Virus record (IMG/VR): IMGVR_UViG_3300021088_000005 | Coordinates: 36,811-100,810 of that record | Origin: a virus | DNA length: 64,000 nt | Direction: 5' to 3' (one strand) | In this document: positions 9,256-53,111 of the stretch, in pieces | Layout: each line of letters opens with the position of its first letter | How positions within the stretch are numbered: the stretch's first letter is position 1 | Position numbers and translations under genes: made by a program | Notes under the pieces: model-generated | Told to the model about the DNA's origin: nothing | What the model saw: the letters and a program-made list of their open reading frames with translations, nothing else | The model's database searches: none

Positions 9256-9507
9256 TTATGTCTTGCTAATACCTGTGAATCCTGGTCGTGTCCAGTCTTC
9301 TGGGTGCGCCGGAGCAGGCTCTGCCTTCCAGCCCGGTCCCGCCTTCGGGCTCGGAGAAATCTTGTCGTCCGCGTCTCCCGGCTTCGGAAGCGACTGATCG
9401 GTGTATGTTTTCGGCTTGGTCTGGTCTATGACACCTTCGATCTCCATAGACGATTCGCCCTTACGGGCGTTGCGAGCCGATTTATATGATGGTTTGTTGT
9501 CTGCCAT
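9256..9507 (-). CDS. Small charged protein of unknown function, 83 aa
   Basis: Starts at ATG 9507 behind AGAGATATT and lies between two fibre-like genes with gaps of about 10 bases. It is Lys/Pro/Asp-rich, has no membrane segment and no recognised domain. Small, disordered proteins between fibre genes may be chaperones or linkers, but nothing in the sequence supports a specific role. Confidence 0.5.
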   Translation of the reverse strand: MADNKPSYKSARNARKGESSMEIEGVIDQTKPKTYTDQSLPKPGDADDKISPSPKAGPGWKAEPAPAHPEDWTRPGFTGISKT

Positions 9508-39006: not shown

Positions 39007-39085
39007 TGGTCGGGAAGGTGGGATTCGGACCCACGTGCTTTCGCTTCCGAAGCGAACGAGATAAGCCAAACTCCTCTACTTCCCG
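39007..39085 (-). tRNA. tRNA-Pro (anticodon CGG)
   Basis: Acceptor CGGGAAG/CTTCCCG, anticodon loop TTCGGAA, T-arm GTGGG-TCCGAAT-CCCAC, CCA encoded. The D-arm is long. Last tRNA before the terminator. Confidence 0.93.
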
Positions 39086-39091
39086 TAAAAT

Positions 39092-39165
39092 TGGTCGGGG
39101 AACTGAGAATCGGACTCAGACCCTACGCTCCCAAAGCGTATGTGCTGCCATAACACTTCTCCCCG
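39092..39165 (-). tRNA. tRNA-Pro (anticodon TGG)
   Basis: Acceptor CGGGGAG/TTCCCCG, anticodon loop TTTGGGA, T-arm CTGAG-TCCGATT-CTCAG, CCA encoded. Confidence 0.93.
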
Positions 39166-39171
39166 ATAAAA

Positions 39172-39936: not shown

Positions 39937-40029
39937 AGACTACCAACTCATTCGCAATACTTGGCGGAGCACTTATGCGAATGCATGCCGTTCGCTTATT
40001 GGAGCGAGCCTCTGCTCGGCTTGTAAAAA

Positions 40030-40104
40030 TGGCTGCGAGACTAGGACTCGAACCTAGATGCGCGGCTTCAGAGACCGCTATCCTACCAATTAGATGATCT
40101 CGCA
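40030..40104 (-). tRNA. tRNA-Gln (anticodon CTG)
   Basis: Acceptor TGCGAGA/TCTCGCA, loop CTCTGAA, T-arm CTAGG-TTCGAGT-CCTAG, discriminator G, CCA encoded. Confidence 0.93.
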
Positions 40105-40222
40105 ATAAATTTTGGAGGGTAGCCATTTCGTTCCCGCTAGGGCGAAGGGGTCGTTATCACTAGGGCAGTACTACCCTGCTGTTGTTCCCTAATTACCTGA
40201 CCAACGATTTCACAGATCGAAC

Positions 40223-40298
40223 TGGTTGCCTCGACACGACTCGAACGTGTATAGCGGGATTCAAAGTCCCGCGTCCTACCAAATTAGACGACAAGGCA
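40223..40298 (-). tRNA. tRNA-Gln (anticodon TTG)
   Basis: Acceptor TGCCTTG/CGAGGCA, loop CTTTGAA, T-arm ACACG-TTCGAGT-CGTGT, CCA encoded. Confidence 0.93.
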
Positions 40299-40314
40299 AT
40301 AAAATGGAGCGAAC

Positions 40315-40376
40315 TACTTACGGATTCGAACCGTCATCCGGTTGGCCTTCCGGATTACACCCTAGTGCGTGTTCGC
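40315..40376 (-). other. Truncated tRNA-like element (62 bases)
   Basis: Acceptor-like GCGAAC/GTTCGC, encoded CCA and a T-loop TTCGAAT are present. The middle is a hairpin ATCCGG-AAGGCCAA-CCGGAT with an 8-base loop and no U33, and the D-arm is reduced to CAC-TAGG-GTG. It is too short for a normal tRNA, so it is a relic or a tRNA-like RNA. Confidence 0.6.
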
Positions 40377-40382
40377 ATAAAC

Positions 40383-40459
40383 TGGACCAGCAAGTCAGAC
40401 TCGAACTGACTAAGAACAAGGTTGCAGCTTGTCGCCTCGACCGCTTCGGCATTTGCTGG
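40383..40459 (-). tRNA. tRNA-Cys (anticodon GCA)
   Basis: Acceptor CCAGCAA/TTGCTGG, loop CTGCAAC, discriminator U73 as expected for tRNA-Cys, CCA encoded. Confidence 0.93.
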
Positions 40460-40535
40460 TTGGTCGCGGAACCGCCGTGAAGCTAAGTCCCACGATTGGT
40501 GCCCCGCCAGGATTGCTCCGAAGCTAGGGCATAAA

Positions 40536-40622
40536 TGGCGGATGATGAAGGAATCGAACCCTCTTCACCTTTCGGTGAGGACAGTTTTCAAGACTGCTGC
40601 CCCCCATGGAGCCCAATCATCC
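40536..40622 (-). tRNA. tRNA-Ser (anticodon TGA)
   Basis: Class II with long variable arm (CTCACCGAAAGGTGAAG), acceptor GGATGAT/ATCATCC, loop CTTGAAA, discriminator G, CCA encoded. Confidence 0.93.
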
Positions 40623-40629
40623 GTAAAAA

Positions 40630-41145
40630 TTAAGTATGAAACACTGTAATCGGCAACCAAGCAACATGGATATCTACTTCAGTCCCGTTGACTGGTGCGG
40701 AACAAGTTGCGCTAACTCCTAGTCCGAATAGAGAAGACTGAACCGTGCTCCACAAAGACAATGGGTTAATTCCCCATAGATCAGTCGAACTACCAAGAGT
40801 ATAAAACTGTGGCTCGTTAGTTAAAGTAACATGTTTTCCGGTTCCGATTGGGTTGCCGTTCAAAGACATGGCAACATACAACTGACCGCTTCCGCCACCT
40901 GGCGAAGCATAGTACGCCCAGAATCCACCTTCAAGACCTGTTACACTCTGCTGCTCAGCTAATGTAAATCCGTATCGCTGACCGAAGACTGCTACCCCTG
41001 TGTTCTGACTACCGCCACTGAACTCTTTGTTCTGAGCGTAATCGCCTGGGGGCGATCCTACGAGACCACCGATATTAGTCCAGAGTACTTCATTACCGTT
41101 TGCGTACTGTACCGAATAGCCTGCGTATGCGCTTTCACTTGCCAT
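40630..41145 (-). CDS. Putative virion or secreted beta-rich protein in the tRNA array, 171 aa
   Basis: Gly/Ser/Trp-rich, no signal peptide. Segments FGQRYGFTLAEQQSVTGLEG and GGFWAYYASPGGGSGQLYVA suggest a beta-sandwich. Starts MASESAYAGY at ATG 41145 behind GCCGGAGGCTAG. It sits between tRNA-Ser(TGA) and a structured RNA. No family recognised; style is like the decoration proteins further left. Confidence 0.55.
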   Translation of the reverse strand: MASESAYAGYSVQYANGNEVLWTNIGGLVGSPPGDYAQNKEFSGGSQNTGVAVFGQRYGFTLAEQQSVTGLEGGFWAYYASPGGGSGQLYVAMSLNGNPIGTGKHVTLTNEPQFYTLGSSTDLWGINPLSLWSTVQSSLFGLGVSATCSAPVNGTEVDIHVAWLPITVFHT

Positions 41146-41174
41146 CTAGCCTCCGGCAATGCTAGTTAAAAATT

Positions 41175-41275
41175 TGGCGGAGAACCCCTTGCTAAGACTC
41201 CATGTCGCGTTTCCGCTGCAAGGTCCGCTGAAGCGTGTACCTGTTTAAGGTTCCCCGGTCTTTCGACGGTTCTAA
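41175..41275 (-). ncRNA. Unassigned structured RNA ending in CCA
   Basis: Closed by a 9-bp helix CGGGGAACC/GGTTCTCCG directly followed by CCA. Inside: CGC-TTCA-GCG and GCG-GAAA-CGC hairpins and a CCTTGC/GCAAGG stem; a GTC-GAAA-GAC hairpin precedes it. The end looks tRNA-like but no T-loop or anticodon arm is present. Lies between tRNA-Ser(GCT) and the 171-aa gene. Could be a small RNA matured by the tRNA 3' enzymes. Confidence 0.45.
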
Positions 41276-41279
41276 TGTT

Positions 41280-41365
41280 TGGCGGAGAAGGAGGGACTTG
41301 AACCCCCACATCCTTTCGGATGCGAGTTTAGCAAACTCGTGCGTCTACCATTTCGCCACTTCTCC
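41280..41365 (-). tRNA. tRNA-Ser (anticodon GCT)
   Basis: Class II variable arm CATCCGAAAGGATG, acceptor GGAGAAG/CTTCTCC, loop TTGCTAA, discriminator G, CCA encoded. Confidence 0.93.
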
Positions 41366-41374
41366 GTATTCAAC

Positions 41375-41667
41375 TGGTGACCAATAGCCAGGGTTCTGTC
41401 CAGCGCTTTCACGCTTGAACTGTCATTCGTCTTCGCTTCCAACCCGACCTTCGTCACGCTCAACAAGCGCTCTGGTCCTATTTGGAATTGCACCTACAGA
41501 GAGTCACTTCGCTCGAATGACCTATATGACGGTTGTTAAGTTTCTAATCGACCGCTATATGGGTACGAAGCCTTACTAGTCCGGTTACCCGGCCCGCAAC
41601 TTCCACGGTGTAGTGTTGAGATGTGCCCTGAACTTCCTCGGTTTCCCGCGACAGTTTAGGTCACCAA
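41375..41667 (-). ncRNA. rnpB: RNase P RNA (catalytic subunit), phage-encoded
   Basis: On the minus strand the ends pair as P1 (TGGTGACC/GGTCACCA). P2 is AACTGTC/GACAGTT, and a mini P3 is CGG-GAAA-CCG. The conserved blocks of bacterial RNase P RNA are in order: GAGGAAGTTCAGGGC (cf. GAGGAAAGTCCGGGC), CGGGTAACCGG, AACAACCGTC, CCAAATAGGACC (L15 region), AGACGAATGACAGTTC (cf. AGATGAATGACTGTCC) and ACAGAACCCTGGCTATTGGT (cf. ACAGAACCCGGCTTATCGGT). P4 pairs CAGGG with CCCTG. At about 293 bases it is shorter than host forms. The L15 GGU that pairs with tRNA CCA appears changed (AGGACC). It lies between tRNA-Arg(CCT) and tRNA-Ser(GCT), 8-9 bases from each. Expected role: cleaving tRNA 5' leaders, with a host or phage protein subunit. 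Confidence 0.88.
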
Positions 41668-41675
41668 ACTAAAAC

Positions 41676-41752
41676 TGGACGACCTGACTGGACTCGAACC
41701 AGCAAACATTTGTTTAGGAAACAAAGCCCCGATCCTTTCGGGGAACAGGTCG
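41676..41752 (-). tRNA. tRNA-Arg (anticodon CCT)
   Basis: Acceptor CGACCTG/CAGGTCG, GC-rich D-stem CCCC/GGGG, loop TTCCTAA, T-arm GCTGG-TTCGAGT-CCAGT, CCA encoded. Confidence 0.92.
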
Positions 41753-41756
41753 AAAC

Positions 41757-41831
41757 TGGAAGGCCGTAACGGAATCCAACCGTTGTCTCCCCGTTAGAAG
41801 CGGGGCGCATTTTGCACTATACTAACAGCCC
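41757..41831 (-). tRNA. tRNA-Arg (anticodon TCT)
   Basis: Acceptor GGGCTGT/ACGGCCT with G-U pairs, loop CTTCTAA, T-loop TTGGATT, CCA encoded. Confidence 0.9.
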
Positions 41832-41837
41832 ATAAAT

Positions 41838-41912
41838 TGGCAGGGGAAGAGAGATTCGAACTCCCATAACTGGTTTTGGAGACCAGAGTCCTAGCCGTTG
41901 GACGACTCCCCT
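41838..41912 (-). tRNA. tRNA-Trp (anticodon CCA)
   Basis: Acceptor AGGGGAG/TTCCCCT, loop CTCCAAA, discriminator G, T-arm GGGAG-TTCGAAT-CTCTC, CCA encoded. Confidence 0.94.
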
Positions 41913-42039
41913 ATAAACCTTTCCGATGTCACTTTCTCAGATCGCAGGCGCGTGACTGGCCGTGTCACAGTCCTTTGGGCTCGCGTGATCTGCTACGTTA
42001 GGCGATCATCGGTGCTAGTTTTCAAGGCTAGCAGGAACT
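41913..42039 (-). ncRNA. Unassigned structured RNA / tRNA-Ser-like fragment
   Basis: After tRNA-Gly(TCC) comes a hairpin TGCTAG-CCTTGAAAA-CTAGCA, like a tRNA-Ser(TGA) anticodon arm. A nested structure follows: outer CCGATG/CATCGG, then AGATC/GATCT, CGCG/CGCG and GACTG/CAGTC. No T-arm and no open frame. Nature unknown. Confidence 0.4.
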
Positions 42040-42113
42040 TGGAGCGACTGACGTGACTCGGACACGTTTCTCTGGATTGGAAGTCCAGGGCACAACCTAT
42101 ATACCACAGTCGC
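42040..42113 (-). tRNA. tRNA-Gly (anticodon TCC)
   Basis: Acceptor GCGACTG/CAGTCGC, loop CTTCCAA, T-arm ACGTG-TCCGAGT-CACGT, CCA encoded. Confidence 0.93.
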
Positions 42114-42119
42114 AAAACT

Positions 42120-42194
42120 TGGAGCGGCTGACGGGAAATCGAACCCGTACCTGAACCTTGGCAAGGTTCCGTACTACCACTATACTACAGCCGC
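42120..42194 (-). tRNA. tRNA-Gly (anticodon GCC)
   Basis: Acceptor GCGGCTG/CAGCCGC, loop TTGCCAA, CCA encoded. The T-loop reads TTCGATTT, one base longer than usual. Confidence 0.92.
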
Positions 42195-42195
42195 A

Positions 42196-42271
42196 TGGTC
42201 GCTGTGGCTGGATTCGAACCAGCTATACCCGCCTTATGAGAGCGGTGCTTTTCCGGTTAAGCTACACAGCG
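42196..42271 (-). tRNA. tRNA-Met (anticodon CAT)
   Basis: Acceptor CGCTGTG/CACAGCG, anticodon stem CCGCT/GGCGG, loop CTCATAA, T-arm GCTGG-TTCGAAT-CCAGC, CCA encoded. Could be elongator Met or, if lysidine-modified, Ile2. Confidence 0.92.
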
Positions 42272-42277
42272 TAAAAT

Positions 42278-42350
42278 TGGTTGCAGGGGTAGGAGTCGAA
42301 CCTACGTAAGCAAGTTTATGAGGCTTGCCTGAATCCCATTCTCCTCTGCA
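42278..42350 (-). tRNA. Second tRNA with CAT anticodon (Met or Ile2)
   Basis: Loop CTCATAA and T-arm GTAGG-TTCGACT-CCTAC with encoded CCA. The D-arm is minimal (GAAT-GGG-ATTC) and the acceptor has one mismatch. Functional status less certain than its neighbour. Confidence 0.75.
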
Positions 42351-42358
42351 CAGAAATT

Positions 42359-42442
42359 TGGTGCGCGATGAGGGATTTGAACCCCCACGAGTTTCCCCAA
42401 TAGTTTCTAAGACTATCGTGTCTGCCGTTCCACCAATCGCGC
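42359..42442 (-). tRNA. tRNA-Leu (anticodon TAG)
   Basis: Class II; acceptor GCGCGAT/ATCGCGC, loop CTTAGAA, discriminator A, CCA encoded. Confidence 0.93.
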
Positions 42443-42448
42443 AAAACT

Positions 42449-42524
42449 TGGTAGGGATGGAGAGATTCAAACTCTCGTCACTTGGCTTGAAGGGCCAGTA
42501 TCATTATCGCTAGACCACATCCCC
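42449..42524 (-). tRNA. tRNA-Glu (anticodon TTC)
   Basis: Acceptor GGGGATG/CATCCCT, loop CCTTCAA with a C-A pair at one stem end, T-arm GAGAG-TTTGAAT-CTCTC, CCA encoded. Confidence 0.9.
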
Positions 42525-42530
42525 AAAACT

Positions 42531-42604
42531 TGGTCGCGCTGCGGGGAATCGGACCCCGGTTACACGGATGAGAACCGTGTGGCTTGCCACTAACCGACAA
42601 CGCG
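42531..42604 (-). tRNA. tRNA-Glu (anticodon CTC)
   Basis: Acceptor CGCGTTG/CAGCGCG, loop TTCTCAT, T-arm CGGGG-TCCGATT-CCCCG, CCA encoded. Confidence 0.92.
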
Positions 42605-42605
42605 A

Positions 42606-42680
42606 TGGCGGAGATACCGGGGATCGGACCCGGACTTTACCCGTGACAGGGGTACGTCGTTACCAACTGACCCTATCTCC
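42606..42680 (-). tRNA. tRNA-Asp (anticodon GTC)
   Basis: Acceptor GGAGATA/TATCTCC, loop CTGTCAC, discriminator G, CCA encoded. Confidence 0.93.
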
Positions 42681-42681
42681 G

Positions 42682-42755
42682 TGGAGCACCATAAAGGAAT
42701 CTAACCTTTTCTTCCGCTTTACCAAAGCGGTGGACTAACAATATCCTAATAGTGC
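42682..42755 (-). tRNA. tRNA-Thr (anticodon GGT)
   Basis: Acceptor GCACTAT/ATGGTGC, anticodon stem CCGCT/AGCGG, loop TTGGTAA, T-loop TTAGATT, CCA encoded. Confidence 0.92.
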
Positions 42756-42760
42756 GAAAC

Positions 42761-42834
42761 TGGAGCAGCGTCTGAGAATCGGACTCAGGCCAGCGGTTTA
42801 CGAAACCGCGATCATACCACTAGACCAACGCTGC
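42761..42834 (-). tRNA. tRNA-Thr (anticodon CGT)
   Basis: Acceptor GCAGCGT/ACGCTGC, loop TTCGTAA, T-arm CTGAG-TCCGATT-CTCAG, CCA encoded. Confidence 0.93.
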
Positions 42835-42839
42835 AAAAC

Positions 42840-42914
42840 TGGAGCACAATCGAGGAATCCAACCTCGGCTTCCGAGGTACAAGCTCGGCGTCATAGGCGC
42901 TAGACCAATCGTGC
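42840..42914 (-). tRNA. tRNA-Thr (anticodon TGT)
   Basis: Acceptor GCACGAT/ATTGTGC, loop CTTGTAC, T-arm CGAGG-TTGGATT-CCTCG, CCA encoded. Confidence 0.92.
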
Positions 42915-42923
42915 TTACAAAGG

Positions 42924-43019
42924 CTGGGGCAGCAGGATTCGAACCTGCAATGTGCTTACGCACTGTCTGGGTAACGGCCAGATGCTGTACCGGATTGAGC
43001 CACACCCCAATAAAGTCTA
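42924..43019 (-). tRNA. tRNA-Asn (anticodon GTT) with long variable arm
   Basis: Acceptor TGGGGTG/TGCCCCA, loop CCGTTAC, T-arm GCAGG-TTCGAAT-CCTGC. The variable region is about 17 bases with a GTGC-GTAA-GCAC hairpin, as in class II tRNAs, which is abnormal for Asn. No CCA is encoded (GCCT). Its 5' half overlaps the 3' end of the HNH gene. Confidence 0.8.
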
Positions 43020-43489
43020 TCTTCTTCCTCTGCGTGGCAGTTAGCGCAGAGTAAATCACACTTATCTAATTCTAATTCTAATTTTACTTTTTCCCAGGCT
43101 ACAGTTTCTGGGCGCGATATAGCAAATTCTTTTTCTCCAGGTTCTCTATGATGAAATTGTAGTGCTCTTACACACTTACAGTACCCGCACTTCATGCACT
43201 TCCTGCCGAGATATTCAACAGCTCTCTGCTTTATATCTCTACGCCAGTCCATGACTCTTTTACTTACCGCTTTTCTCTTACGGTTAGCGGACTGTTCTTT
43301 CTTTATATTTCTGCACTCATCACTACAATAACTTAATACTGTCCGAATTGCCTTACCGCAAATCTTACAAGACCCTTCTGGTTTCCTCTTAGGAAAACGA
43401 TTGATATTGTTGTTCGCAGAATTGGCACACGTCTTAGAACAATATTTAGGATTGTCTGTGAGTACACCACATCCGTTACATGGGTGCAT
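42956..43489 (-). CDS. HNH endonuclease with zinc fingers in the tRNA array, 177 aa
   Basis: The N-terminus carries repeated zinc-type pairs (CNGCGVLTDNPKYCSKTC, CKICGKAIRTVLSYCSDEC). The C-terminal part has the HNH core: CMKCGYCKC, ALQFHHREPGEKEF, DLLCANCHAEE. ATG 43489 has a strong site AGGAGACTAGA. The stop codon lies inside the tRNA-Asn gene, so about 64 bases are shared. It is probably a mobile homing nuclease that settled in the array. Confidence 0.82.
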   Translation of the reverse strand: MHPCNGCGVLTDNPKYCSKTCANSANNNINRFPKRKPEGSCKICGKAIRTVLSYCSDECRNIKKEQSANRKRKAVSKRVMDWRRDIKQRAVEYLGRKCMKCGYCKCVRALQFHHREPGEKEFAISRPETVAWEKVKLELELDKCDLLCANCHAEEEDRLYWGVAQSGTASGRYPDSA

Positions 43490-43522
43490 TCTAGTCTCCT
43501 AGTTTTAACTTCTAAACAAAAA

Positions 43523-43598
43523 TGGAGACCCTGGAGAGATTCCAACTCCCGACGCCCACGTTCGAAGCGTGGCGCTCTGTGCGCTGAGCTACAGGGTC
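43523..43598 (-). tRNA. tRNA-Arg (anticodon TCG)
   Basis: Acceptor GACCCTG/CAGGGTC, loop CTTCGAA, T-loop TTGGAAT, CCA encoded. Confidence 0.93.
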
Positions 43599-43608
43599 AA
43601 ACTAATCA

Positions 43609-43764
43609 TCAGCGAGGAAACCTACGAATCAACTCCAACTGATGTGTTTCATCTTGGTACCAAACATGAGTGTCCATGTACTTCTTAGAATACCAAAGCA
43701 TAATAGGTAACGGGACCAACCAATAAATCCAAGGTCTCCATGACCAATATATTTTACTCTTCAT
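43609..43764 (-). CDS. Possible small Trp/Tyr-rich membrane protein, 51 aa
   Basis: Begins MKSKIYWSWRPWIYWLVPLP, one hydrophobic segment, then a charged end. The ATG is three bases after the CCA of tRNA-Arg(GCG) and no ribosome site is seen, so expression is doubtful. Confidence 0.3.
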   Translation of the reverse strand: MKSKIYWSWRPWIYWLVPLPIMLWYSKKYMDTHVWYQDETHQLELIRRFPR

Positions 43765-43767
43765 ATC

Positions 43768-43843
43768 TGGTGATCCTATGTGGACTCGAACCACAGCATC
43801 GAGCTTCGCAGGCTCGCACTCTTTCCATCTGAGTTATAGGACC
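43768..43843 (-). tRNA. tRNA-Arg (anticodon GCG)
   Basis: Acceptor GGTCCTA/TAGGATC, loop CTGCGAA, T-arm TGTGG-TTCGAGT-CCACA, CCA encoded. Bacteria normally read CGC/CGU with ACG, so a GCG anticodon is unusual. Confidence 0.9.
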
Positions 43844-43912
43844 ATAAACTTTTAGGGTTACGATCCCTCAACGGCTGCTTATTTCCGGTCTACAGCAAGA
43901 CGATCATTAAAC
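43844..43912 (-). other. Spacer with two hairpins
   Basis: Minus strand GCTG...CAGC around TAGACCGGAAATAAG, then AGGG-ATCGTAA-CCCT. No tRNA and no gene; a similar GGGCT-AAG-AGCCC hairpin lies in the spacer at 45318-45385. Confidence 0.4.
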
Positions 43913-43987
43913 TGGTACGCCGCCGAGGAGTTGAACCTCGCTCTTCCGGGTGTAAACCGGGTGCATCTGCCGATCTGCCAGCAGCGT
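43913..43987 (-). tRNA. tRNA-Val (anticodon TAC)
   Basis: Acceptor ACGCTGC/GCGGCGT, loop TTTACAC, T-arm CGAGG-TTCAACT-CCTCG, CCA encoded. Confidence 0.92.
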
Positions 43988-44138
43988 ATGGTGGAGTCGG
44001 TGTGCCACGGTATCCCGGAAGGTTCTACCTTCTGTAGGTCTTGCCGTGCTCCATAATGTCCGGCGCGGATTGCATGTTGCTCCGCGTCGTCCGATGTGTC
44101 AGATAGTTCGTTGTATACTATCTCACACATCGTAAAAT
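43988..44138 (-). ncRNA. Unassigned structured RNA with strong hairpins, ends in ACCA
   Basis: 5' hairpin: CGATGTGT/ACACATCG stacked on AGATAGT/ACTATCT (15 bp in all). Next GCGGA/TCCGC. Then TGGAG...CTCCA enclosing CACGG/CCGTG and CTAC/GTAG, followed directly by CCA before tRNA-Val. The region is also open for translation from ATG 44130 but without a ribosome site. Pairing argues for RNA function; class unknown. Confidence 0.45.
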
Positions 44139-44212
44139 TGGTGTAGGCGAAGGGAATCGAACCCTCAAATTCTCGGTGCAAGCGAGACAGTTTCCCGTTA
44201 GCTTACGCCCAC
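44139..44212 (-). tRNA. tRNA-Ala (anticodon TGC)
   Basis: Acceptor GTGGGCG/CGCCTAC, loop CTTGCAC, T-arm GAGGG-TTCGATT-CCCTT, CCA encoded. It lacks the G3-U70 pair in standard place but has a G-T pair at position 3. Confidence 0.9.
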
Positions 44213-44219
44213 ATAAAAT

Positions 44220-44293
44220 TGGTAGTCGGCCAGTGACTCGAACACTGATCTCACGTTAATCGGACGCGGGTCCTACCTTTGAACGAGCCGACT
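44220..44293 (-). tRNA. tRNA-Ile (anticodon GAT)
   Basis: Acceptor AGTCGGC/GCCGACT, T-arm CAGTG-TTCGAGT-CACTG, CCA encoded. The anticodon loop CCGATTA has C at position 33 instead of U. Confidence 0.85.
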
Positions 44294-44412
44294 ATAAACT
44301 TTACCGCTACACTTCTTCATATGAAACCAAAGAGCATCAGCCGGATTTATCTTGGCTGTTATCTCTTGCCCACATTTACTGCATCGAAGTACGCGTAGCT
44401 TTGACATAAACT

Positions 44413-44500
44413 GGTGGAGAAGGAGTGAATCGAACACTCTACGTCTCAAGGACGGTTGGTTTTACAGACCAATGCGACTCTCCAACTTCGCCGCTTCTCC
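44413..44500 (-). tRNA. tRNA-Tyr (anticodon GTA)
   Basis: Class II; acceptor GGAGAAG/CTTCTCC, loop CTGTAAA, discriminator A, CCA encoded. Confidence 0.94.
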
Positions 44501-44506
44501 AAAACT

Positions 44507-44582
44507 TGGTGGGACATGACGGGCTCGAACCGTCAACCGACTCCTTAAAAGGGAGCTATGTTGCCACTAACACCTATGTCCC
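44507..44582 (-). tRNA. tRNA-Lys (anticodon TTT)
   Basis: Acceptor GGGACAT/ATGTCCC, loop CTTTTAA, T-arm GACGG-TTCGAGC-CCGTC, CCA encoded. Confidence 0.93.
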
Positions 44583-44588
44583 GAAACT

Positions 44589-44663
44589 TGGTGCGCCTCC
44601 CGTGAATTAAACACGGTCCCGACGGGTTAAGAGCCCGCTGTGCTATCGTAACACCTGAAGCGC
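44589..44663 (-). tRNA. tRNA-Lys (anticodon CTT)
   Basis: Acceptor GCGCTTC/GAGGCGC, loop CTCTTAA, CCA encoded. T-loop is TTTAATT rather than TTCRANN. Confidence 0.88.
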
Positions 44664-44771
44664 AAAACTTAATAACCTGTGGAGGAATCGAACCTCTACT
44701 GACATTAGCGCGTAGACGTTATCGGTCAGCAAGCACCCGAGGTATCTACGTACCCGCCGTGCTCACGGTCT
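44664..44771 (-). pseudogene. Degenerate tRNA-like segment
   Basis: A T-arm-like GAGG-TTCGATT-CCTC and CAGGTTAT end are preceded by stems CTGAC/GTCAG and CGTAGA/TCTACG, but no consistent acceptor, D-arm or CCA exists. Probably a decayed tRNA with an insertion in its anticodon region. Confidence 0.5.
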
Positions 44772-44858
44772 TGGTGCGCTGCCCCGGATTTGAACCGGGA
44801 CGGGGTTTAGTCCAGCGGGTTTTAAGTCCGCTATGTCTGCCTGTTCCATCAGCAGCGC
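44772..44858 (-). tRNA. tRNA-Leu (anticodon TAA)
   Basis: Class II; acceptor GCGCTGC/GCAGCGC, loop CTTAAAA, T-arm CCCGG-TTCAAAT-CCGGG, CCA encoded. Confidence 0.92.
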
Positions 44859-44941
44859 AAAATCATAGATGGCGTCCTATCCGTTAGACGATACACGCCG
44901 ATAGCATGCACCGGGACTCGAACCCGGATTTCCACCTTACT
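44859..44941 (-). ncRNA. tRNA segment in circularly permuted order (3' half before 5' half)
   Basis: Minus-strand order is GGTGG-AAAT-CCGGG-TTCGAGT-CCCGG-TGCATGC (3' half), then TATCG, then GCGTGTA-TC-GTCT-AACGGATA-GGAC-G-CCATC-TATGATTTT (5' half). The halves pair as one tRNA: acceptor GCGTGTA/TGCATGC (7 bp with two G-U) and anticodon stem CCATC/GGTGG (5 bp with one G-U). The D-arm matches that of the array's tRNA-Trp. Processing of the neighbours tRNA-Ile(TAT) and tRNA-Leu(TAA) would free exactly this piece. No CCA is encoded at the joint. It may be an active permuted tRNA, or a relic. Confidence 0.6.
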
Positions 44942-45035
44942 TGGTAGTCTCGAAGAGATTCGAACTCTTATCGCGCCCCAATCTAGGGCTTATCCAGTTT
45001 ATAAGGCTGGCGCTCTGCCGTTGAGCTACGAGACT
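44942..45035 (-). tRNA. tRNA-Ile (anticodon TAT) with 24-base variable region
   Basis: Acceptor AGTCTCG/CGAGACT, anticodon arm CCAGC-CTTATAA-ACTGG, T-arm AAGAG-TTCGAAT-CTCTT, CCA encoded. The variable region holds a GCCC-TAGATT-GGGGC hairpin, not expected in Ile tRNAs. Confidence 0.85.
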
Positions 45036-45232
45036 AAAATCTTGAACCTTCCCGAGCTTTACTAGCGTGACACTCGGTCTTGATTAACAAGTCGTGCCTT
45101 CCACGCTAGCGGTTGCACGATCAATGAACGGTTCAAACTTGATTCGGGACCCGGCATCAACCTTCCCAGGAAGTGCCACGTCGGTTAGAAGCTTGACACT
45201 TACTACCAACGTCGTCAAGGTTTCCCGAAAAC
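45036..45232 (-). other. Spacer with open frame fragment and long-range stem
   Basis: Contains CTAGCGTG/CACGCTAG pairing over about 35 bases, and a frame ending ...FEPFIDRATASVEGTTC at TAA 45084. That frame is open through tRNA-Leu(CAA) back to an ATG at 45359 without a ribosome site. It looks like the remnant of a gene cut by tRNA insertion, or an RNA. Confidence 0.35.
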
Positions 45233-45317
45233 TGGTGCGACAGAGGGGAGTTGAACCCCTATGAGACAAGCTCGGCGGTTTTTGAGACCGCTGCGTATGC
45301 CATTCCGCCACTATCGC
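45233..45317 (-). tRNA. tRNA-Leu (anticodon CAA)
   Basis: Class II; acceptor GCGATAG/CTGTCGC, loop CTCAAAA, T-arm AGGGG-TTCAACT-CCCCT, CCA encoded. Confidence 0.92.
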
Positions 45318-45385
45318 ATAATCTTTAGGGCTCTTAGCCCAAGGTAAGACTTCATCCATGTAGGAGAAGCTTTCTTACCTAAACT

Positions 45386-45460
45386 TGGTCCGGACTCACG
45401 GAATTGAACCGCGTACGCCCACCTCTTCAGGGTGGCGCTCTACCGATGAGCTAAGCCCGG
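45386..45460 (-). tRNA. tRNA-Phe (anticodon GAA)
   Basis: Acceptor CCGGGCT/AGTCCGG, loop CTGAAGA, T-loop TTCAATT, discriminator A, CCA encoded. Confidence 0.93.
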
Positions 45461-45633
45461 ATAAAATAGTATTCATCGTGACAAACGTCTTAAGCCGGAT
45501 GCCTTCGTCACAACGGGTGACCAGCCATATAGAGTTCACGCCCCACCGGGGAATGACTCTAGTCTAAGCAAACTCACCAGATTGGCCTGCGCAAGCCTTA
45601 GCATCTCTCCGGCAAGAAGCAAGTCTCGATTAC
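45461..45633 (-). other. Structured leader between the second promoter and tRNA-Phe
   Basis: About 170 bases with CTAAG/CTTAG, GGCTTGCGCAGGCC, TAGAGT/ACTCTA around CCCC-GGT-GGGG, and GTCAC-CCGTT-GTGAC hairpins. No tRNA and no credible gene. Confidence 0.4.
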
Positions 45634-45639
45634 AAATAC

Positions 45640-45668
45640 ATTGTACCACAACTTTCGAATCTTGTCAA
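45640..45668 (-). promoter_or_regulatory. Internal tRNA-array promoter
   Basis: TTGACA (45663-45668), 17-base spacer, TACAAT (45640-45645). The spacer shares AGTTGTG with the array-head promoter at 46078-46106. The -35 box overlaps the stop codon of the 48-aa gene. Confidence 0.8.
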
Positions 45669-45811
45669 GCGATTTCTTCGACCATCTCAAGAAATATTTC
45701 CATCGCTTCGATCATTCTGCTGCGCCCAAACTCGTCAGCCAGGACATAAACCTCAGCGTCGGACATCTTGCTTGTTATGACTACGCCGTCTTCCAGGGAT
45801 GTCCACACCAT
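45665..45811 (-). CDS. Small acidic helical protein, 48 aa
   Basis: Start ATG 45811 with a strong site GGAGGAACCG; stop TGA 45665. Sequence begins MVWTSLEDGVVITSKMSDAE and ends SRMIEAMEIFLEMVEEIA. No family recognised. It lies between the two tRNA-array promoters, so it is made together with tRNA-His. Confidence 0.6.
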   Translation of the reverse strand: MVWTSLEDGVVITSKMSDAEVYVLADEFGRSRMIEAMEIFLEMVEEIA

Positions 45812-45863
45812 CGGTTCCTCCACCCGCCTGGGGGTTGGACCCGGCGGACAGAATCTAATCCAG

Positions 45864-45917
45864 TGGCGGAGAAAGGATCGTAACCGCTACGCCGGACGCT
45901 CTTATGAGCACACTGGA
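45864..45917 (-). pseudogene. Truncated tRNA-Met-like remnant
   Basis: Keeps a CTCATAA loop-like segment, a T-arm-like GCGG-TTACGAT-CC and the 3' end TTTCTCCGCCA, but has no D-arm and no 5' acceptor strand. Upstream (about 45948-45985) is a triplicated GAAACATACGCT-type repeat. Confidence 0.45.
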
Positions 45918-45987
45918 AACTTTGGGTGGCTGATTGCGCTCTGACAGCCGAAGTTTCAGCGTATGTTTCAGCGTATGTTTCTAATTT

Positions 45988-46063
45988 TGGGGTGTCCCGC
46001 CGGAATCGGACCGAGCGCTACAGGATTCACAGTCCCGTGTGCTTCCATTACACCACGGACACC
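45988..46063 (-). tRNA. tRNA-His (anticodon GTG)
   Basis: Loop CTGTGAA, acceptor GTGTCCG/GGGACAC, and G-1 opposite C73 as tRNA-His needs; CCA encoded. First tRNA after the array promoter. Confidence 0.93.
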
Positions 46064-47584: not shown

Positions 47585-47636
47585 AGTACTAGTACCATTT
47601 TGTTGTTGACAAGCGTACGCTATAGTATGGTATAGT
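47585..47636 (+). promoter_or_regulatory. Early promoter with GTAC palindrome (gene at 47658)
   Basis: AGTACTAGTAC (47585-47595), then CATTTTGTTG, TTGACA (47606-47611), 19-base spacer with TGG, TATAGT (47631-47636). Confidence 0.75.
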
Positions 47637-49202: not shown

Positions 49203-49505
49203 TTATTTCTTGTACGTGATGTTAGCTACAGGCTTGTGCAAGCGGATTAGCCTAATCTCTTCTTGATTGGCTTCCTCTTTGTTGTCGAAGACTGTTATAC
49301 GTACCTCATCCGCTTTCCAGAATGCCTGTACCCTAGTCGGCCCAGGGTTGAGGGCGCTGGAATACAGTCCGCTGTATTTGTCGAAGACTCTGGTAAACCC
49401 GATGTAGGATCGTCCGACATACATGACCTTACCATCCGCGATAAACTCATAGACGCAGGGCATGCGGAACTTCTTACCAGATACCGTTAATGTGCCTAAT
49501 CTCAT
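49203..49505 (-). CDS. GIY-YIG domain protein, 100 aa, leaderless
   Basis: Leftward gene inside the rightward early region. FRMPCVYEFIADGKVMYVGR has the GIY-YIG-like pair (VYEF...MYVG), followed by SYIGFTRVFDKYSGLYSSA and NKEEANQEEIRLIRLHKP, where the Glu matches the catalytic acid. No DNA-binding extension, so it is smaller than a typical homing nuclease. ATG 49505 is exactly where transcription should begin from its promoter. Confidence 0.7.
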   Translation of the reverse strand: MRLGTLTVSGKKFRMPCVYEFIADGKVMYVGRSYIGFTRVFDKYSGLYSSALNPGPTRVQAFWKADEVRITVFDNKEEANQEEIRLIRLHKPVANITYKK

Positions 49506-49511
49506 GCTCGA

Positions 49512-49540
49512 ATCATACCACAAAACCGATAATTTGTCAA
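49512..49540 (-). promoter_or_regulatory. Promoter giving a leaderless GIY-YIG mRNA
   Basis: TTGACA (49535-49540), 17-base spacer ending TGG, TATGAT (49512-49517). Counting 7 bases downstream puts +1 at 49505, the A of ATG. Confidence 0.8.
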
Positions 49541-49550
49541 TATAAATCGT

Positions 49551-49594
49551 GTGGCGAAATATCGTCACTTAATTAAGTGGCGAAATATCGTCAC
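49551..49594. repeat. Two perfect 18-bp direct repeats upstream of the leaderless promoter
   Basis: GTGGCGAAATATCGTCAC at 49551-49568 and 49577-49594, separated by TTAATTAA. Each is an imperfect palindrome. Placed 10 bases behind the -35 box, they look like a tandem operator. Confidence 0.75.
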
Positions 49595-49896
49595 CTTGCA
49601 GCCCTAAAAACACGTAGCTCGTAAGTTATTGAAAACACACATGTGGCACCAACCGGGTATTAGAGAGGAAAAGTTATTATGTGTGAGGGTTATTGTAAGG
49701 TTAAAACTATGACAAATAACGACTTGGAGCTATTAAAAAGATAATTATAATTAGCGCGTGTCTCCCTCTTACGGCCTAGTTGGTGACACATATTATACGG
49801 AATATTTTGCTTCTTGTTTTCCGTATAATAAGTGTCACCAACCCACTTGGTGCCACTTATTATACACAATATTTTGGTACTAGTACCATTTTGTTG
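49569..49896. promoter_or_regulatory. Non-coding repeat-rich region
   Basis: No credible gene (one 11-codon ATG frame at 49708). Holds three to four copies of TTGGTGACAC(A/T)TATTATAC: direct at 49780, inverted at 49819-49841, direct at 49847, partial inverted at 49643-49652. The first and second form a 22-bp inverted repeat with a loop of about 16 bases. Confidence 0.65.
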
Positions 49897-49925
49897 TTGA
49901 CATATCTCCGAGCATATGAGACTAT
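49876..49925 (+). promoter_or_regulatory. Early promoter with perfect GTAC palindrome, leaderless
   Basis: GGTACTAGTACC (49876-49887), ATTTTGTTG, TTGACA (49897-49902), 17 bases, GACTAT (49920-49925) preceded by TGA. Predicted +1 is 49932, the A of ATG. Confidence 0.8.
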
Positions 49926-49931
49926 ACGCAC

Positions 49932-50168
49932 ATGGCAACCAGAAAGTGCTTCGCATGCGGTCGCAAGCTAGGCAAGAACCCATACCGTGCGGTATGCGAA
50001 GACGAGCAGATCGTGTTTATAGGCTCCGAGTGCTTTAAGCTGATCGGTCCTGATGGGTTCCAGCTAGACCACGGCCCCAGGCTGTACAGAGGCATATTCG
50101 CGCCTAATGGAGTCCTGTTACAGGTTATCGGACTAGACTCGCATCCGAGCATTGGAAAGCAGTACTAA
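49932..50168 (+). CDS. Zinc-type small protein, 78 aa
   Basis: MATRKCFACGRKLGKNPYRA has one CxxC and later SECFKL gives a further Cys; probably a partial zinc ribbon that senses or binds nucleic acid. It has no Shine-Dalgarno; the ATG coincides with the predicted +1. Its stop overlaps the next start (TAATG). Confidence 0.65.
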   Translation: MATRKCFACGRKLGKNPYRAVCEDEQIVFIGSECFKLIGPDGFQLDHGPRLYRGIFAPNGVLLQVIGLDSHPSIGKQY

Positions 50169-50326
50169 TGCACAAGATCATCAAGCGCAACCGAAACTAT
50201 GAGATTCCCAGGCGGGATAAGATCGAATTTGAGGTCTATCTGGACGGTCAACTAGTCGCGGTGTTCGACTCCAAGCGGGAAGCTATTGATTGGGTTATGG
50301 CCCAGGAGTACCCTAAATCCGTATAA
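50168..50326 (+). CDS. Small basic protein, 52 aa
   Basis: Start overlaps the upstream stop. MHKIIKRNRNYEIPRRDKIE then VYLDGQLVAVFDSKREAIDW: a short beta-beta-helix. Not in a known family. Coupled translation is likely. Confidence 0.6.
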   Translation: MHKIIKRNRNYEIPRRDKIEFEVYLDGQLVAVFDSKREAIDWVMAQEYPKSV

Positions 50327-50337
50327 TAAGGAGACCT

Positions 50338-50658
50338 ATGTACAAATCATTGATCGTCGCAATGTTCGTTGCCAGCACGGTATCGGCAGCACCGAAGCCA
50401 AAGAAAGTCTATAAGGTCACCCCGGTATCTGACTCGGAAGCCATTATAGTCTGCTCGAACGGCGCGGACCCTACTTTTAAGGCGGTCACTTCCGGCGCTG
50501 TCCTGGTCTCATGCGGCGCTACTGTCAAGGCAACCTGGGACGGCACCAAGTTCACATGTCCTGCGAGCGCCCCGTATGTTTGGGCCGATGAGGGCGAAGC
50601 TCTCAATGGTAAGTCGGACTATGTGTATTGTGGCAAGACCCCGCTGTTAGGCCAGTAG
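50338..50658 (+). CDS. Exported small protein with signal peptide, 106 aa
   Basis: MYKSLIVAMFVASTVSAAPK is a clear Sec signal with cleavage after SAA. The mature part is beta-rich with four Cys (IVCSNG, VSCGAT, FTCPAS, VYCGKT), likely two disulfides. Site AAGGAGACCT. Early export to the periplasm suggests an envelope role such as superinfection exclusion or inhibitor; unproven. Confidence 0.7.
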   Translation: MYKSLIVAMFVASTVSAAPKPKKVYKVTPVSDSEAIIVCSNGADPTFKAVTSGAVLVSCGATVKATWDGTKFTCPASAPYVWADEGEALNGKSDYVYCGKTPLLGQ

Positions 50659-50667
50659 TACTTAATC

Positions 50668-50711
50668 GGTACTAAAGTACTATTGCATTCAATCCAAGAC
50701 TGTGAGACTAT
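50668..50711 (+). promoter_or_regulatory. Early promoter with GTAC palindrome
   Basis: GGTACTAAAGTACT (50668-50681), TTGCAT (50683-50688), 17 bases, GACTAT (50706-50711) preceded by TGA. Predicted +1 is 50718, an ATG. Confidence 0.7.
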
Positions 50712-50717
50712 AGCGCC

Positions 50718-50909
50718 ATGGACAACAAACAACTTCGGAAGATAGGAGCTAACATGGAAGAAACTCCAAGATGGATTGGCGCTCATTCAGTGAACTGCGC
50801 AGTCTGCGACACTTTGGTGGACGAACGGGACTGCGCCCCTAGTGCTGACGGTGACGTTTGTCCCGAGTGTCAAGTGCTCGATGCCATCGAATCTGAACGG
50901 ACAGACTAG
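50718..50909 (+). CDS. Zinc-ribbon small protein, 63 aa (alternative start 50754)
   Basis: NCAVCDTLVDERDC and DVCPECQVLDA form a zinc ribbon. Two starts compete: ATG 50718, which equals the predicted +1 and would be leaderless, and ATG 50754 (MEETPRWIGA), which has the site AGGAG at 50745. Both would give the ribbon; a dual-start gene is possible. Confidence 0.65.
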   Translation: MDNKQLRKIGANMEETPRWIGAHSVNCAVCDTLVDERDCAPSADGDVCPECQVLDAIESERTD

Positions 50910-50917
50910 GAGACAAT

Positions 50918-51088
50918 ATGGAAGTCGGCACATATGTCGAGATTATCGGAATGGACTTGCGCGGACGGATTATCAGCATTCGACTGGACGACCGCCGCGA
51001 ATTGATTATCACAGTGGAACTGGACGACCAAACATCTACACCGTCGGGACTATACTACGCACGTGTGTACGAATTGGACGTAATATGA
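50918..51088 (+). CDS. Small beta-rich protein, 56 aa
   Basis: ATG 50918 after AGGAGACAAT. MEVGTYVEIIGMDLRGRIIS, then strands ending YARVYELDVI: an SH3-like small barrel pattern. Its TGA overlaps the next ATG (ATGA). Confidence 0.6.
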   Translation: MEVGTYVEIIGMDLRGRIISIRLDDRRELIITVELDDQTSTPSGLYYARVYELDVI

Positions 51089-51321
51089 ATCCGCGATACC
51101 TAGCGTATTGTCGAGCGCATAATATGAGCCCACAGCAGATGATGCAGCACGACCGCGATAAGTATCCCGGCGGGTGTATGTGTGGCTTTATTATCTGGCA
51201 TAGTGCCAAGCTAAGCGAAGCACGGCATGCGCACCCGGAGTTTTTCTACATTGAGATTGGCGGAACCGCAGGCGGGTTACTTAATCATAAGGCCTATGAT
51301 AGGTGGTTAAATGAAAACTAA
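51085..51321 (+). CDS. Small unknown protein, 78 aa
   Basis: Begins MNPRYLAYCRAHNMSPQQMM at an ATGA overlap. Contains CMCGFIIWHSAKLSEARH, so Cys and His might bind metal. Ends inside the start of the metallopeptidase gene. Confidence 0.6.
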   Translation: MNPRYLAYCRAHNMSPQQMMQHDRDKYPGGCMCGFIIWHSAKLSEARHAHPEFFYIEIGGTAGGLLNHKAYDRWLNEN

Positions 51322-51700
51322 ACTCACAGTCGAAATTGACATAGACACCGAACGTGACGGAGCAACCTGTCTAGCCGGAACACACATTCCCGGACTATAT
51401 CAGATTGAAGTAAGAAAAGACATAATGGATGCATTCGGCGCGTCCCCGCTGTCACCCGGTGTAGCACTGGCCCATGAGCTAGGACATTTGATAGCGCATG
51501 TATTTCAGATGCCCGGTAGCGTTCGCGAACCCAGGCCCCTATATCCGAATCAATGGGGGCAATTCGTCCCTGATTATAGTTTGAGAGTATTAGCGTCCGA
51601 AAAGGAAGCCTGGGACGTAGCCGAGCTAATCTTCCAAACCAAACACGCTAAGATCGAAGCGCTTAAGACGTACGAGAAAGGATTCAAGCTATGGGAATAG
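51311..51700 (+). CDS. HExxH metallopeptidase-like protein, 129 aa
   Basis: VALAHELGHLIAHVF is the zinc-binding HExxH motif, and SEKEAWDVAELIF downstream supplies a likely third ligand Glu, as in ImmA/IrrE-like (M78) peptidases. The N-terminal half is beta-rich. ImmA-type enzymes cleave repressors, but a target here is unknown. Overlaps both neighbours by 9-11 bases. Confidence 0.75.
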   Translation: MKTKLTVEIDIDTERDGATCLAGTHIPGLYQIEVRKDIMDAFGASPLSPGVALAHELGHLIAHVFQMPGSVREPRPLYPNQWGQFVPDYSLRVLASEKEAWDVAELIFQTKHAKIEALKTYEKGFKLWE

Positions 51701-51945
51701 ACTTCGGCCAGGCTAAGAAAATGAAGCCACGAAAATTTCGCTTACACTTCAATAGAGTCAACATGCAACGCGGCAATCCAAATATCTGGACTGTCCATAC
51801 TTCGGACCGATGTTATCAGGTTAAGCGCGTGGTAACATACGTCCAATTGGAAACCGTATTCAAGCCGGACGGCCCGCAGCCGCGTGCTTATTTATCAGGA
51901 CGCGGTACGGTAGTAATCGACGGAGACACAGCGTACTTGACCTAG
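51691..51945 (+). CDS. Small basic beta-rich protein, 84 aa
   Basis: MGIDFGQAKKMKPRKFRLHF, then strands with NIWTVHTSDRCYQVKRVVTY. Ends AYLT at TAG 51943. Basic charge suggests nucleic acid contact; no family. Confidence 0.55.
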   Translation: MGIDFGQAKKMKPRKFRLHFNRVNMQRGNPNIWTVHTSDRCYQVKRVVTYVQLETVFKPDGPQPRAYLSGRGTVVIDGDTAYLT

Positions 51946-52009
51946 TACTTTAGTACCATCAAAATCGGTACTTTCGTACTATTGTGTTTATTTCTGTTTC
52001 TGGTATGAT
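51944..52009 (+). promoter_or_regulatory. Early promoter with two GTAC palindromes
   Basis: AGTACTTTAGTACC (51944-51957) and GGTACTTTCGTACT (51967-51980), TTGTGT (51982-51987), 16 bases, TATGAT (52004-52009) with TGG extension. The gene has a normal leader and AGGAG. Confidence 0.65.
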
Positions 52010-52027
52010 CGTCATATAGGAGATTAC

Positions 52028-52546
52028 ATGGCACTCAAAACAACCTATACCGACGGTGGCAAGACCACAGAAGGATTCGCTCATGAGCACAACGACTGTG
52101 GTGTTCGAGCGCTGGCAATAGCAGCCGCCATCCCATACTCTGAGGCTCACGGTCTACTCAAGGCAGAGGGTAGACGAGACCGTAAGGGCACAAAGGCAAA
52201 CTGGATTATATCCGCGATGCGCAAATCTGGAATCCAAGCGGAAGAGATCACAGTACGCGACCCTAAGCTGCACTGGTATGGTGGTAACTCATACACTAAT
52301 CCAACCCTGGCAGAGATAATCCGGGCACATCAGACCGGGCGCTATCTTGTTATAGTCAACGGGCACGCTCTCGCAATGATCGATGGGGTTATACACGACA
52401 AGGGCGAAATCGCAGGCGCACGTTCGCGAGTCCGGATGATGTACCGCGTGACTCCGAAGACCCAGGAAACAGCGCAACCACAGATAACCCAGGGACAGAT
52501 CAATGAACTGTGGGAGCGCATGAACCGCCTAGCAGCGAAGCTGTAG
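52028..52546 (+). CDS. Cysteine-peptidase-like protein, 172 aa
   Basis: AHEHNDCGVRALAIAAAIPY resembles the Cys-containing start of a papain/C39-like domain; GRRDRKGTKANW follows, and GRYLVIVNGHALAMIDGVIH would give the His. This Cys-His layout is found in a phage family of unknown substrate. C-terminal coiled coil (QITQGQINELWERMNRLAAK). Site AGGAGATTAC. Confidence 0.6.
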   Translation: MALKTTYTDGGKTTEGFAHEHNDCGVRALAIAAAIPYSEAHGLLKAEGRRDRKGTKANWIISAMRKSGIQAEEITVRDPKLHWYGGNSYTNPTLAEIIRAHQTGRYLVIVNGHALAMIDGVIHDKGEIAGARSRVRMMYRVTPKTQETAQPQITQGQINELWERMNRLAAKL

Positions 52547-52594
52547 TACTGGTACCATTTTGTTGTTGACATTATTCCGGATCGGTGAGACAAT
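52545..52594 (+). promoter_or_regulatory. Early promoter with GTAC palindrome, leaderless
   Basis: AGTACTGGTACC (52545-52556), ATTTTGTTG, TTGACA (52566-52571), 17 bases, GACAAT (52589-52594) after TGA. Predicted +1 is 52601, the A of ATG. Confidence 0.8.
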
Positions 52595-52600
52595 CTCTAT

Positions 52601-52795
52601 ATGAAAAGCATACAAGCAACAGTAGGACAACACAAACGGCAACACCCGGAGCAATACTGTCCGGTTCGTGATTGCCTGTGGAAGACCAACGGCGGGCTGT
52701 GCCCGCGTCATATCTCGAAAGGTGAACCCGATGGCTATGTCTTCGGCCACCCGGTATGGCTTCCCGAAGTAGCAAAGCGAAAGGCGGTGCGATAA
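52601..52795 (+). CDS. Small Cys/His protein, 64 aa, leaderless
   Basis: QYCPVRDCLWKTNGGLCPRH has three Cys and a His, a possible zinc knuckle. No ribosome site; ATG equals the predicted +1. Its stop overlaps the following ATG (TAATG). Confidence 0.65.
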   Translation: MKSIQATVGQHKRQHPEQYCPVRDCLWKTNGGLCPRHISKGEPDGYVFGHPVWLPEVAKRKAVR

Positions 52796-53022: not shown

Positions 53023-53071
53023 GTACTAGTACGTTTTTGTTGTTGACAAGCTTTCGAGTTCATGAGATACT
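53022..53071 (+). promoter_or_regulatory. Early promoter with GTAC palindrome (DUF932-like gene)
   Basis: AGTACTAGTAC (53022-53032), GTTTTTGTTG, TTGACA (53043-53048), 17 bases, GATACT (53066-53071) after TGA. +1 near 53078; the leader starts with a GCGGC-ACA-GCCGC hairpin before AAGAGATAAA. Confidence 0.8.
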
Positions 53072-53111
53072 CAGTACATCAAAAGCGGCACAGCCGCAGA
53101 AAAGAGATAAA

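What the first reader, a model, noticed from the sequence alone, without database searches (positions are those of the whole stretch)
49512..52601. Leaderless transcripts: predicted +1 equals the start codon in four genes
For the promoters at 49512 (minus), 49897, 50683 and 52566, counting 7 bases from the -10 box lands exactly on the A of ATG at 49505, 49932, 50718 and 52601. None of these ATGs has a Shine-Dalgarno. Four exact coincidences in 3 kb suggest a set of genes built for leaderless translation by 70S ribosomes, perhaps favoured when the host ribosome or initiation factors are altered.
Basis: partly seen in the sequence, partly recalled or inferred. Interest (0 to 1): 0.78.

Follow-up and report, generated by a model that had tools for sequence, protein, structure and literature searches.

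The report
Phage promoters ending in a start codon
In a group of soil phages that probably infect Acidobacteriota, many promoters place the start codon exactly on the predicted first base of the mRNA, so those genes are probably translated without a leader, and a dozen of the promoters add a second, ribosome-site-led start in the same reading frame.

Summary
The four coincidences are real: base +7 after each -10 hexamer is the A of ATG at 49505(-), 49932, 50718 and 52601. They are not four independent events. Three promoters belong to one phage promoter family: a GTAC-nn(nn)-GTAC palindrome, then -35, usually 17 bp, then often TGAGANNNT. Three other family members in the window have leaders.

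The pattern holds beyond the window. In seven related phages ATG sits at +7 in 15 of 98 promoter-like sites, against about 2 per other offset (p 2e-9). It recurs in an independently chosen set (10/135, p 5e-4) and in cultured Acidobacteriota phage Tunturi_3 (5/20, p 8e-6), where four such ATGs are deposited gene starts. Two unrelated phages show no spike. Of 75 promoters picked by the palindrome, blind to ATG, 24 have ATG at +7. Twelve of these have no ribosome site; twelve have a second, ribosome-site-led start 12, 15 or 36 nt downstream, always in frame (controls 13/28, Fisher 9e-4). Gene 50718 is of this dual type; 49505, 49932 and 52601 look leaderless.

An altered host ribosome is not supported: no IF2, IF3 or MazF gene was found, and Acidobacteria already have about 13% predicted leaderless genes. 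No RNA 5' end has been mapped.

The parts
49512..49540 (-). sigma70-type promoter TTGACA-17-TATGAT with TG extension
   Evidence: 11 of 12 hexamer match; ATG starts 7 nt after it
49203..49505 (-). small GIY-YIG-like endonuclease ORF (100 aa), predicted leaderless start at 49505
   Evidence: phrog_16880 endonuclease E 1.7e-6, Pfam GIY-YIG E 0.0038, below cut-off; first 22 residues align start to start with a relative in G003 whose start has AGGAGG
49877..49925 (+). family promoter: palindrome GTACTAGTAC, TTTTGTTG, -35 TTGACA, 17 bp, TGA-GACTAT
49932..50168 (+). 78-aa Cys-containing ORF, predicted leaderless; TGA of the extended -10 is an in-frame stop 15 nt upstream, so no ATG, GTG or TTG start exists upstream in that frame
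50669..50711 (+). family promoter, second type: GTACTAAAGTAC, -35 TTGCAT, 17 bp, TGA-GACTAT
   Evidence: weak hexamers
50718..50909 (+). 63-aa Cys-rich ORF with dual start: 5'-terminal ATG 50718 and in-frame ATG 50754 preceded by AGGAG (50744-50748)
52546..52594 (+). family promoter: GTACTGGTAC, TTTTGTTG, TTGACA, 17 bp, TGA-GACAAT
52601..52795 (+). 64-aa ORF, predicted leaderless start at 52601
53023..53071 (+). family promoter with a leader: ATC at +7, then a short hairpin, GAGA, ATG 53112 (DUF932 protein)
   Evidence: relative G003 keeps CAGTACATCAAA at the orthologous promoter
47586..47636 (+). family promoter with SD leader (AAGGAG, ATG 47658, GP88-family gene); -10 TGGTATAGT read with a 19-bp spacer
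51968..52009 (+). family promoter, second type, with 12-nt leader ATAGGAGATTAC before ATG 52028

Best explanation
These are sigma70-type phage promoters that place transcription start (+1 = A, 7 nt after the -10 hexamer) on the A of an ATG, so the mRNA begins with AUG. In genes such as 49505, 49932 and 52601 this AUG is the only start, and the mRNA is translated as a leaderless message by the host's ordinary ribosomes. In others (50718 and several relatives) the 5' AUG is followed by an SD-led second start in the same frame, so either mode of initiation makes the same protein apart from a few N-terminal residues. Shown by sequence statistics: the exact spacing, the conserved initiator, the missing SD and the frame agreement. 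Inferred: the mapped +1, ribosome binding at the 5' AUG, and that the host (probably Acidobacteriota) routinely translates such messages.
For: Spike of ATG at exactly +7 in seven related phages (15/98 sites, p 2.4e-9), in an independent set (10/135, p 5.5e-4) and in cultured Tunturi_3 (5/20, p 8e-6); no spike in Curvibacter phage P26059A (0/10) or GAP32 (0/16). Of 75 palindrome-selected promoters, 63 have A at +7 and 69 have a pyrimidine before it. Even in the 51 without ATG, 39 have A at +7, which supports +7 as the transcription start independently of start codons. 24/75 have ATG at +7; among the 32 that begin AT, 24 continue with G (p 4e-9), so ATG rather than a mere AT initiator is kept. 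Twelve of the 24 have no SD-led start. In the other 12 the SD-led start is always in frame, against 13/28 in leaders without a 5' start codon (Fisher 9e-4). ORFs from +7 ATGs have a median of 104 aa against 49 aa for ATGs at other offsets. Four of the +7 ATGs in Tunturi_3 are deposited CDS starts: 93131 RNase H, 63359 integrase, 70377 and 43518. Acidobacteria: 3 of 3 genomes with on average 13.3% predicted leaderless genes (PMC3160421).
Against: No RNA 5' end or translation data. The genomes are related and some promoters within a genome are probably duplicates, so the p values overstate independence. Sister promoters in the window (47606, 51982, 53043) make leaders, so the family does not impose leaderlessness. 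Some -10 hexamers (GAGGAT, in G001 and in Tunturi_3 70377) resemble an SD, and a transcript from farther upstream could use it. My own check of 174 genes of an Acidobacteriota plasmid was inconclusive for a leaderless signal. Genes 49932, 50718 and 52601 have no relatives in the other phages compared, so start conservation cannot be checked for them.
Confidence: 0.8

Rival explanations
1. AT(G) at +1 is only a promoter initiator element. The AT dinucleotide favours transcription start, and the ATG codon is not where translation begins.
For: A at +7 is conserved even in leadered promoters (39/51), and ATC occurs at the same place at 53078 and in G003. In several non-family promoters ATGGAGG is followed by an out-of-frame SD start (G001 61110 and 79822, G009 53659).
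Against: Among AT starts G follows in 24/32 (p 4e-9). In 12 family cases no SD start exists and the +7 ATG opens an ORF (32-475 aa where classified). Frame agreement is 12/12 in the dual class. At 49932 no ATG, GTG or TTG start lies upstream in frame.
Confidence: 0.12
2. The 5' AUG in the dual class works as a ribosome landing signal that boosts the SD-led start, as in E. coli ptrB, rather than as a start in its own right.
For: In E. coli ptrB, changing the 5' AUG to AUC cut downstream expression to below 8% (PMC4965119). The family layout ATGGAGG-N5 or N8-ATG is shorter than the 26-nt ptrB leader. Out-of-frame cases exist at non-family promoters.
Against: The in-frame bias (12/12; 18/19 with NTG at +8) is not needed for a pure landing signal.
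Confidence: 0.35
3. Chance plus selective reading: the reader picked -10 registers that fit.
For: The 50683 hexamers are weak (6/12), and three of four sites are from one duplicated family.
Against: The spike at offset 7 appears in a blind scan, in independent contigs and in a cultured phage with deposited annotation, and in promoters selected only by the upstream palindrome.
Confidence: 0.02
4. Phage-altered ribosomes or initiation factors favour these messages.
For: None found; leaderless messages are known to respond to initiation-factor and initiator-tRNA levels in E. coli (PMC9031893).
Against: No IF3, IF2 or MazF/PemK match in the record; the phage CAT tRNA is not initiator-like; 119/146 Tunturi_3 genes are SD-led; host phylum already rich in leaderless genes.
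Confidence: 0.04

Closest known systems
Leaderless (TA-led) bacterial genes, Zheng et al. 2011 (PMC3160421)
   Same: -10-like box ending about 6 nt before the start codon, no SD; found in Acidobacteria at about 13%
   Different: Here in phages, tied to a phage-specific promoter family with an upstream palindrome; mixed with SD-led sister promoters
5'-uAUG mRNAs with Shine-Dalgarno sequences in E. coli, Beck et al. 2016 (PMC4965119)
   Same: AUG at the predicted mRNA 5' end followed by an SD-led start
   Different: Beck et al. chose out-of-frame cases; in this family the two starts are in frame, 12 or 15 nt apart (once 36)
Leaderless lambda cI mRNA
   Same: Phage message beginning with AUG, translated without leader (cited in PMC4965119 and PMC9031893)
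   Different: Single repressor gene; here many unrelated genes across a clade
ESAS/SAS elements of cluster K mycobacteriophages (PMC11373665)
   Same: Repeated phage promoter with inverted repeat upstream of a conserved start region; one leaderless gene predicted in Adephagia
   Different: Different sequences and host; SAS lies 3-9 bp upstream of the start codon, not at +1
Tunturiibacter phage Tunturi_3 (PP885686)
   Same: Nearest cultured relative by portal protein; same +7 ATG spike
   Different: 36% portal identity

Membership tests
Leaderless (TA-led) genes | -10 box about 10-12 bp upstream of the start codon | tested here: met
   Exact 6-nt gap at all four sites and clade-wide
Leaderless (TA-led) genes | No SD upstream of the start | tested here: met
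   Met for 49505, 49932 and 52601; 50718 has an additional SD-led in-frame start
Leaderless (TA-led) genes | Mapped transcription start at the start codon | not testable with these tools
   Only the YA initiator at +7 supports it
5'-uAUG plus SD mRNAs | AUG at 5' terminus and SD-led start downstream | tested here: met
   50718 and 11 other palindrome-family promoters; the 5' terminus itself is predicted, not mapped
5'-uAUG plus SD mRNAs | 5' AUG binds 70S ribosomes and affects the downstream start | not testable with these tools
   needs toeprint or reporter assays
Cluster K ESAS/SAS | Inverted repeat joined to a SigA-like promoter | tested here: met
   GTAC palindrome before the -35; resemblance of layout only, sequences not compared
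Cluster K ESAS/SAS | 13-bp SAS 3-9 bp upstream of the start codon | not tested
   SAS sequence not searched
Specialised (MazF-type) ribosome system | Phage gene for MazF or an initiation factor | tested here: not met
   no match for PF02452, PF00707 or PF11987 in the record

The most novel reading that the evidence does not exclude
This phage clade has evolved a promoter family with a built-in start codon at +1. Its dual-start members (5'-AUG, SD, second AUG, in frame) are a deliberate hedge that lets either leaderless or SD-led initiation make the same protein, under control of one palindrome-binding regulator.
Probability: 0.4. Interest if true: 0.7.

Novelty: new variant of a known kind. 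Interest (0 to 1): 0.58.

Why it matters
Leaderless translation in phages is usually shown gene by gene (lambda cI). Here a phage clade uses it systematically, together with tandem in-frame starts, and one member (Tunturi_3) and its host are in culture, so mapping 5' ends and ribosomes is feasible. Start-codon annotation of such phages should consider promoter-adjacent ATGs as well as SD sites.

Tried and rejected
DNA similarity to known phages: none in near or distant mode. Relatives of the 49932 protein and of the DUF932 protein in IMG/VR by sequence: none found. The promoter pattern in GTDB genomes gave 7 hits, none with the palindrome, about what chance would give by my estimate. L012, L015 and L018 have TTGTTGTTGACA but are unrelated and were dropped. 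A leaderless signal in Granulicella plasmid genes was inconclusive.

Full report
What was checked. The window is bases 36811-100810 of a 100,810-bp virus record. I read the region, confirmed that base +7 after each of the four -10 hexamers is the A of ATG, and confirmed that no Shine-Dalgarno (SD) lies between. The 49512(-) and 52566 promoters match the consensus at 11 and 10 of 12 bases. 49897 has a perfect -35 but a -10 of GACTAT. 50683 is weak (TTGCAT/GACTAT).

Three of the four are one family. 49897 and 52566 share a 50-bp element with 47606 and 53043: GTACTNGTAC, then NNTTTTGTTG, TTGACA and, in three of the four, 14 bp and TGAGANNNT. 50683 carries a second form of the same palindrome, GTACTAAAGTAC two bases before the -35; 51982 has it too. 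So the coincidences at 49932, 50718 and 52601 come from one promoter type. The family also includes leadered members in this window: 47606 with AAGGAG before ATG 47658, 51982 with a 12-nt leader ATAGGAGATTAC before ATG 52028, and 53043 with ATC at +7 and a start at 53112.

Relatives. A pattern scan of IMG/VR found the promoter in further contigs. Seven distinct phages share about 70% DNA identity over parts and a conserved portal protein (60-77% identity). The nearest cultured phage by portal is Tunturiibacter phage Tunturi_3 (36% identity), a podovirus of an Acidobacteriota host (PMC11924767). I therefore infer an Acidobacteriota host; this is not shown.

Statistics. In the seven phages, a blind scan for promoter-like sites (-35 at least 5/6, extended -10, spacing 16-18) gives 98 sites. 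ATG begins at +7 in 15 and at other offsets about 2 each (p 2.4e-9). Twelve contigs chosen only by their portal protein give 10/135 against 2.8 (p 5.5e-4); offset 9 is also raised there (8). Tunturi_3 gives 5/20 against 0.3 (p 7.7e-6). Curvibacter phage P26059A and Cronobacter phage GAP32 show none at offset 7. With slightly wider criteria I classified 45 sites with ATG at +7: 30 have no SD-led start nearby, and ORFs from the +7 ATG have a median of 104 aa against 49 aa for ATGs at other offsets. In Tunturi_3, ATGs at 93131, 63359, 70377 and 43518 are deposited gene starts, among them RNase H and an integrase. 119 of its 146 genes tested are SD-led, and among the 27 without SD, five have a strong promoter ending 6-7 nt before the start.

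Promoters chosen by palindrome only. A second scan enlarged the set to 75 promoters selected without reference to ATG. Base +7 is A in 63 and the base before it is C or T in 69. In the 51 without ATG, +7 is still A in 39. This supports +7 as the transcription start independently of any start codon. ATG is at +7 in 24. Among the 32 that begin AT, 24 continue with G (p 4e-9). Of the 24, 12 have no SD-led start and 12 have one 12, 15 or 36 nt downstream. All 12 are in frame, while leaders without a 5' start codon are in frame in 13 of 28 (Fisher 9e-4). Leaders with NTG one base later (AGTGGAGG and similar) are in frame in 6 of 7. At promoters outside the family the frame agreement is not seen; several ATGGAGG leaders there have the next start 11 or 13 nt on. 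Because the genomes are related and some promoters may be duplicates, these p values overstate the strength of the evidence.

Individual genes. 49505: the first 22 residues align start to start with a G003 protein whose start has AGGAGG, so this start codon is right although it lacks an SD here. 49932: the TGA of the extended -10 is an in-frame stop 15 nt upstream, and none of the codons between is ATG, GTG or TTG. 50718: ATG 50754, in frame, has AGGAG 5 nt upstream; this gene is of the dual type. 52601: only start of a 64-aa ORF. None of the last three has a relative in the other phages compared.

Mechanism. Most likely the host's own ribosomes start at the 5' AUG, as in known leaderless messages. 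Zheng et al. predicted leaderless genes in 3 of 3 Acidobacteria genomes, on average 13.3% (PMC3160421). Beck et al. showed that 5' AUGs on SD-led E. coli messages bind 70S ribosomes and can control the downstream start (PMC4965119). The idea of altered ribosomes is not supported: no IF3, IF2 or MazF/PemK match, and the CAT tRNA of the phage has a paired first position, unlike an initiator. My own test on a Granulicella plasmid was inconclusive. What remains unshown is any mapped 5' end or ribosome position.

Noticed in passing
L034:9622-9788 (G002), L029:5711-5929 (G001), L038 about 9374-9481 (G003): Family promoters drive a non-coding RNA whose ends look like a tRNA acceptor stem and T arm (GAGTCGG ... 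GGTTCGAATCCC.CCCGACTC) around a longer insert; ARAGORN calls no tRNA or tmRNA at these places and Rfam has no hit in L034.
   Followed up: partly
G013, G017 and L223 family promoters: A second hairpin RNA with a shared ACCTGAGA(G/A)ACC sequence follows palindrome promoters in three contigs.
   Followed up: partly
window 49551-49594 and 49779-49865: Tandem GTGGCGAAATATCGTCAC palindromes and a 24-bp inverted repeat GTTGGTGACACATATTATACGGAA with a third partial copy, between the divergent promoters; possibly an origin or operator region.
   Followed up: no
window 39007-46062: About 32 tRNA genes on the minus strand covering most amino acids (Rfam agrees and adds one at 42452-42524).
   Followed up: no
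G017 family promoters near 38.9, 40.0, 41.2 and 43.7 kb: Transcripts are predicted to begin AGTG(G)AGG with GTG at +2, again in frame with the SD-led ATG in all four.
   Followed up: yes
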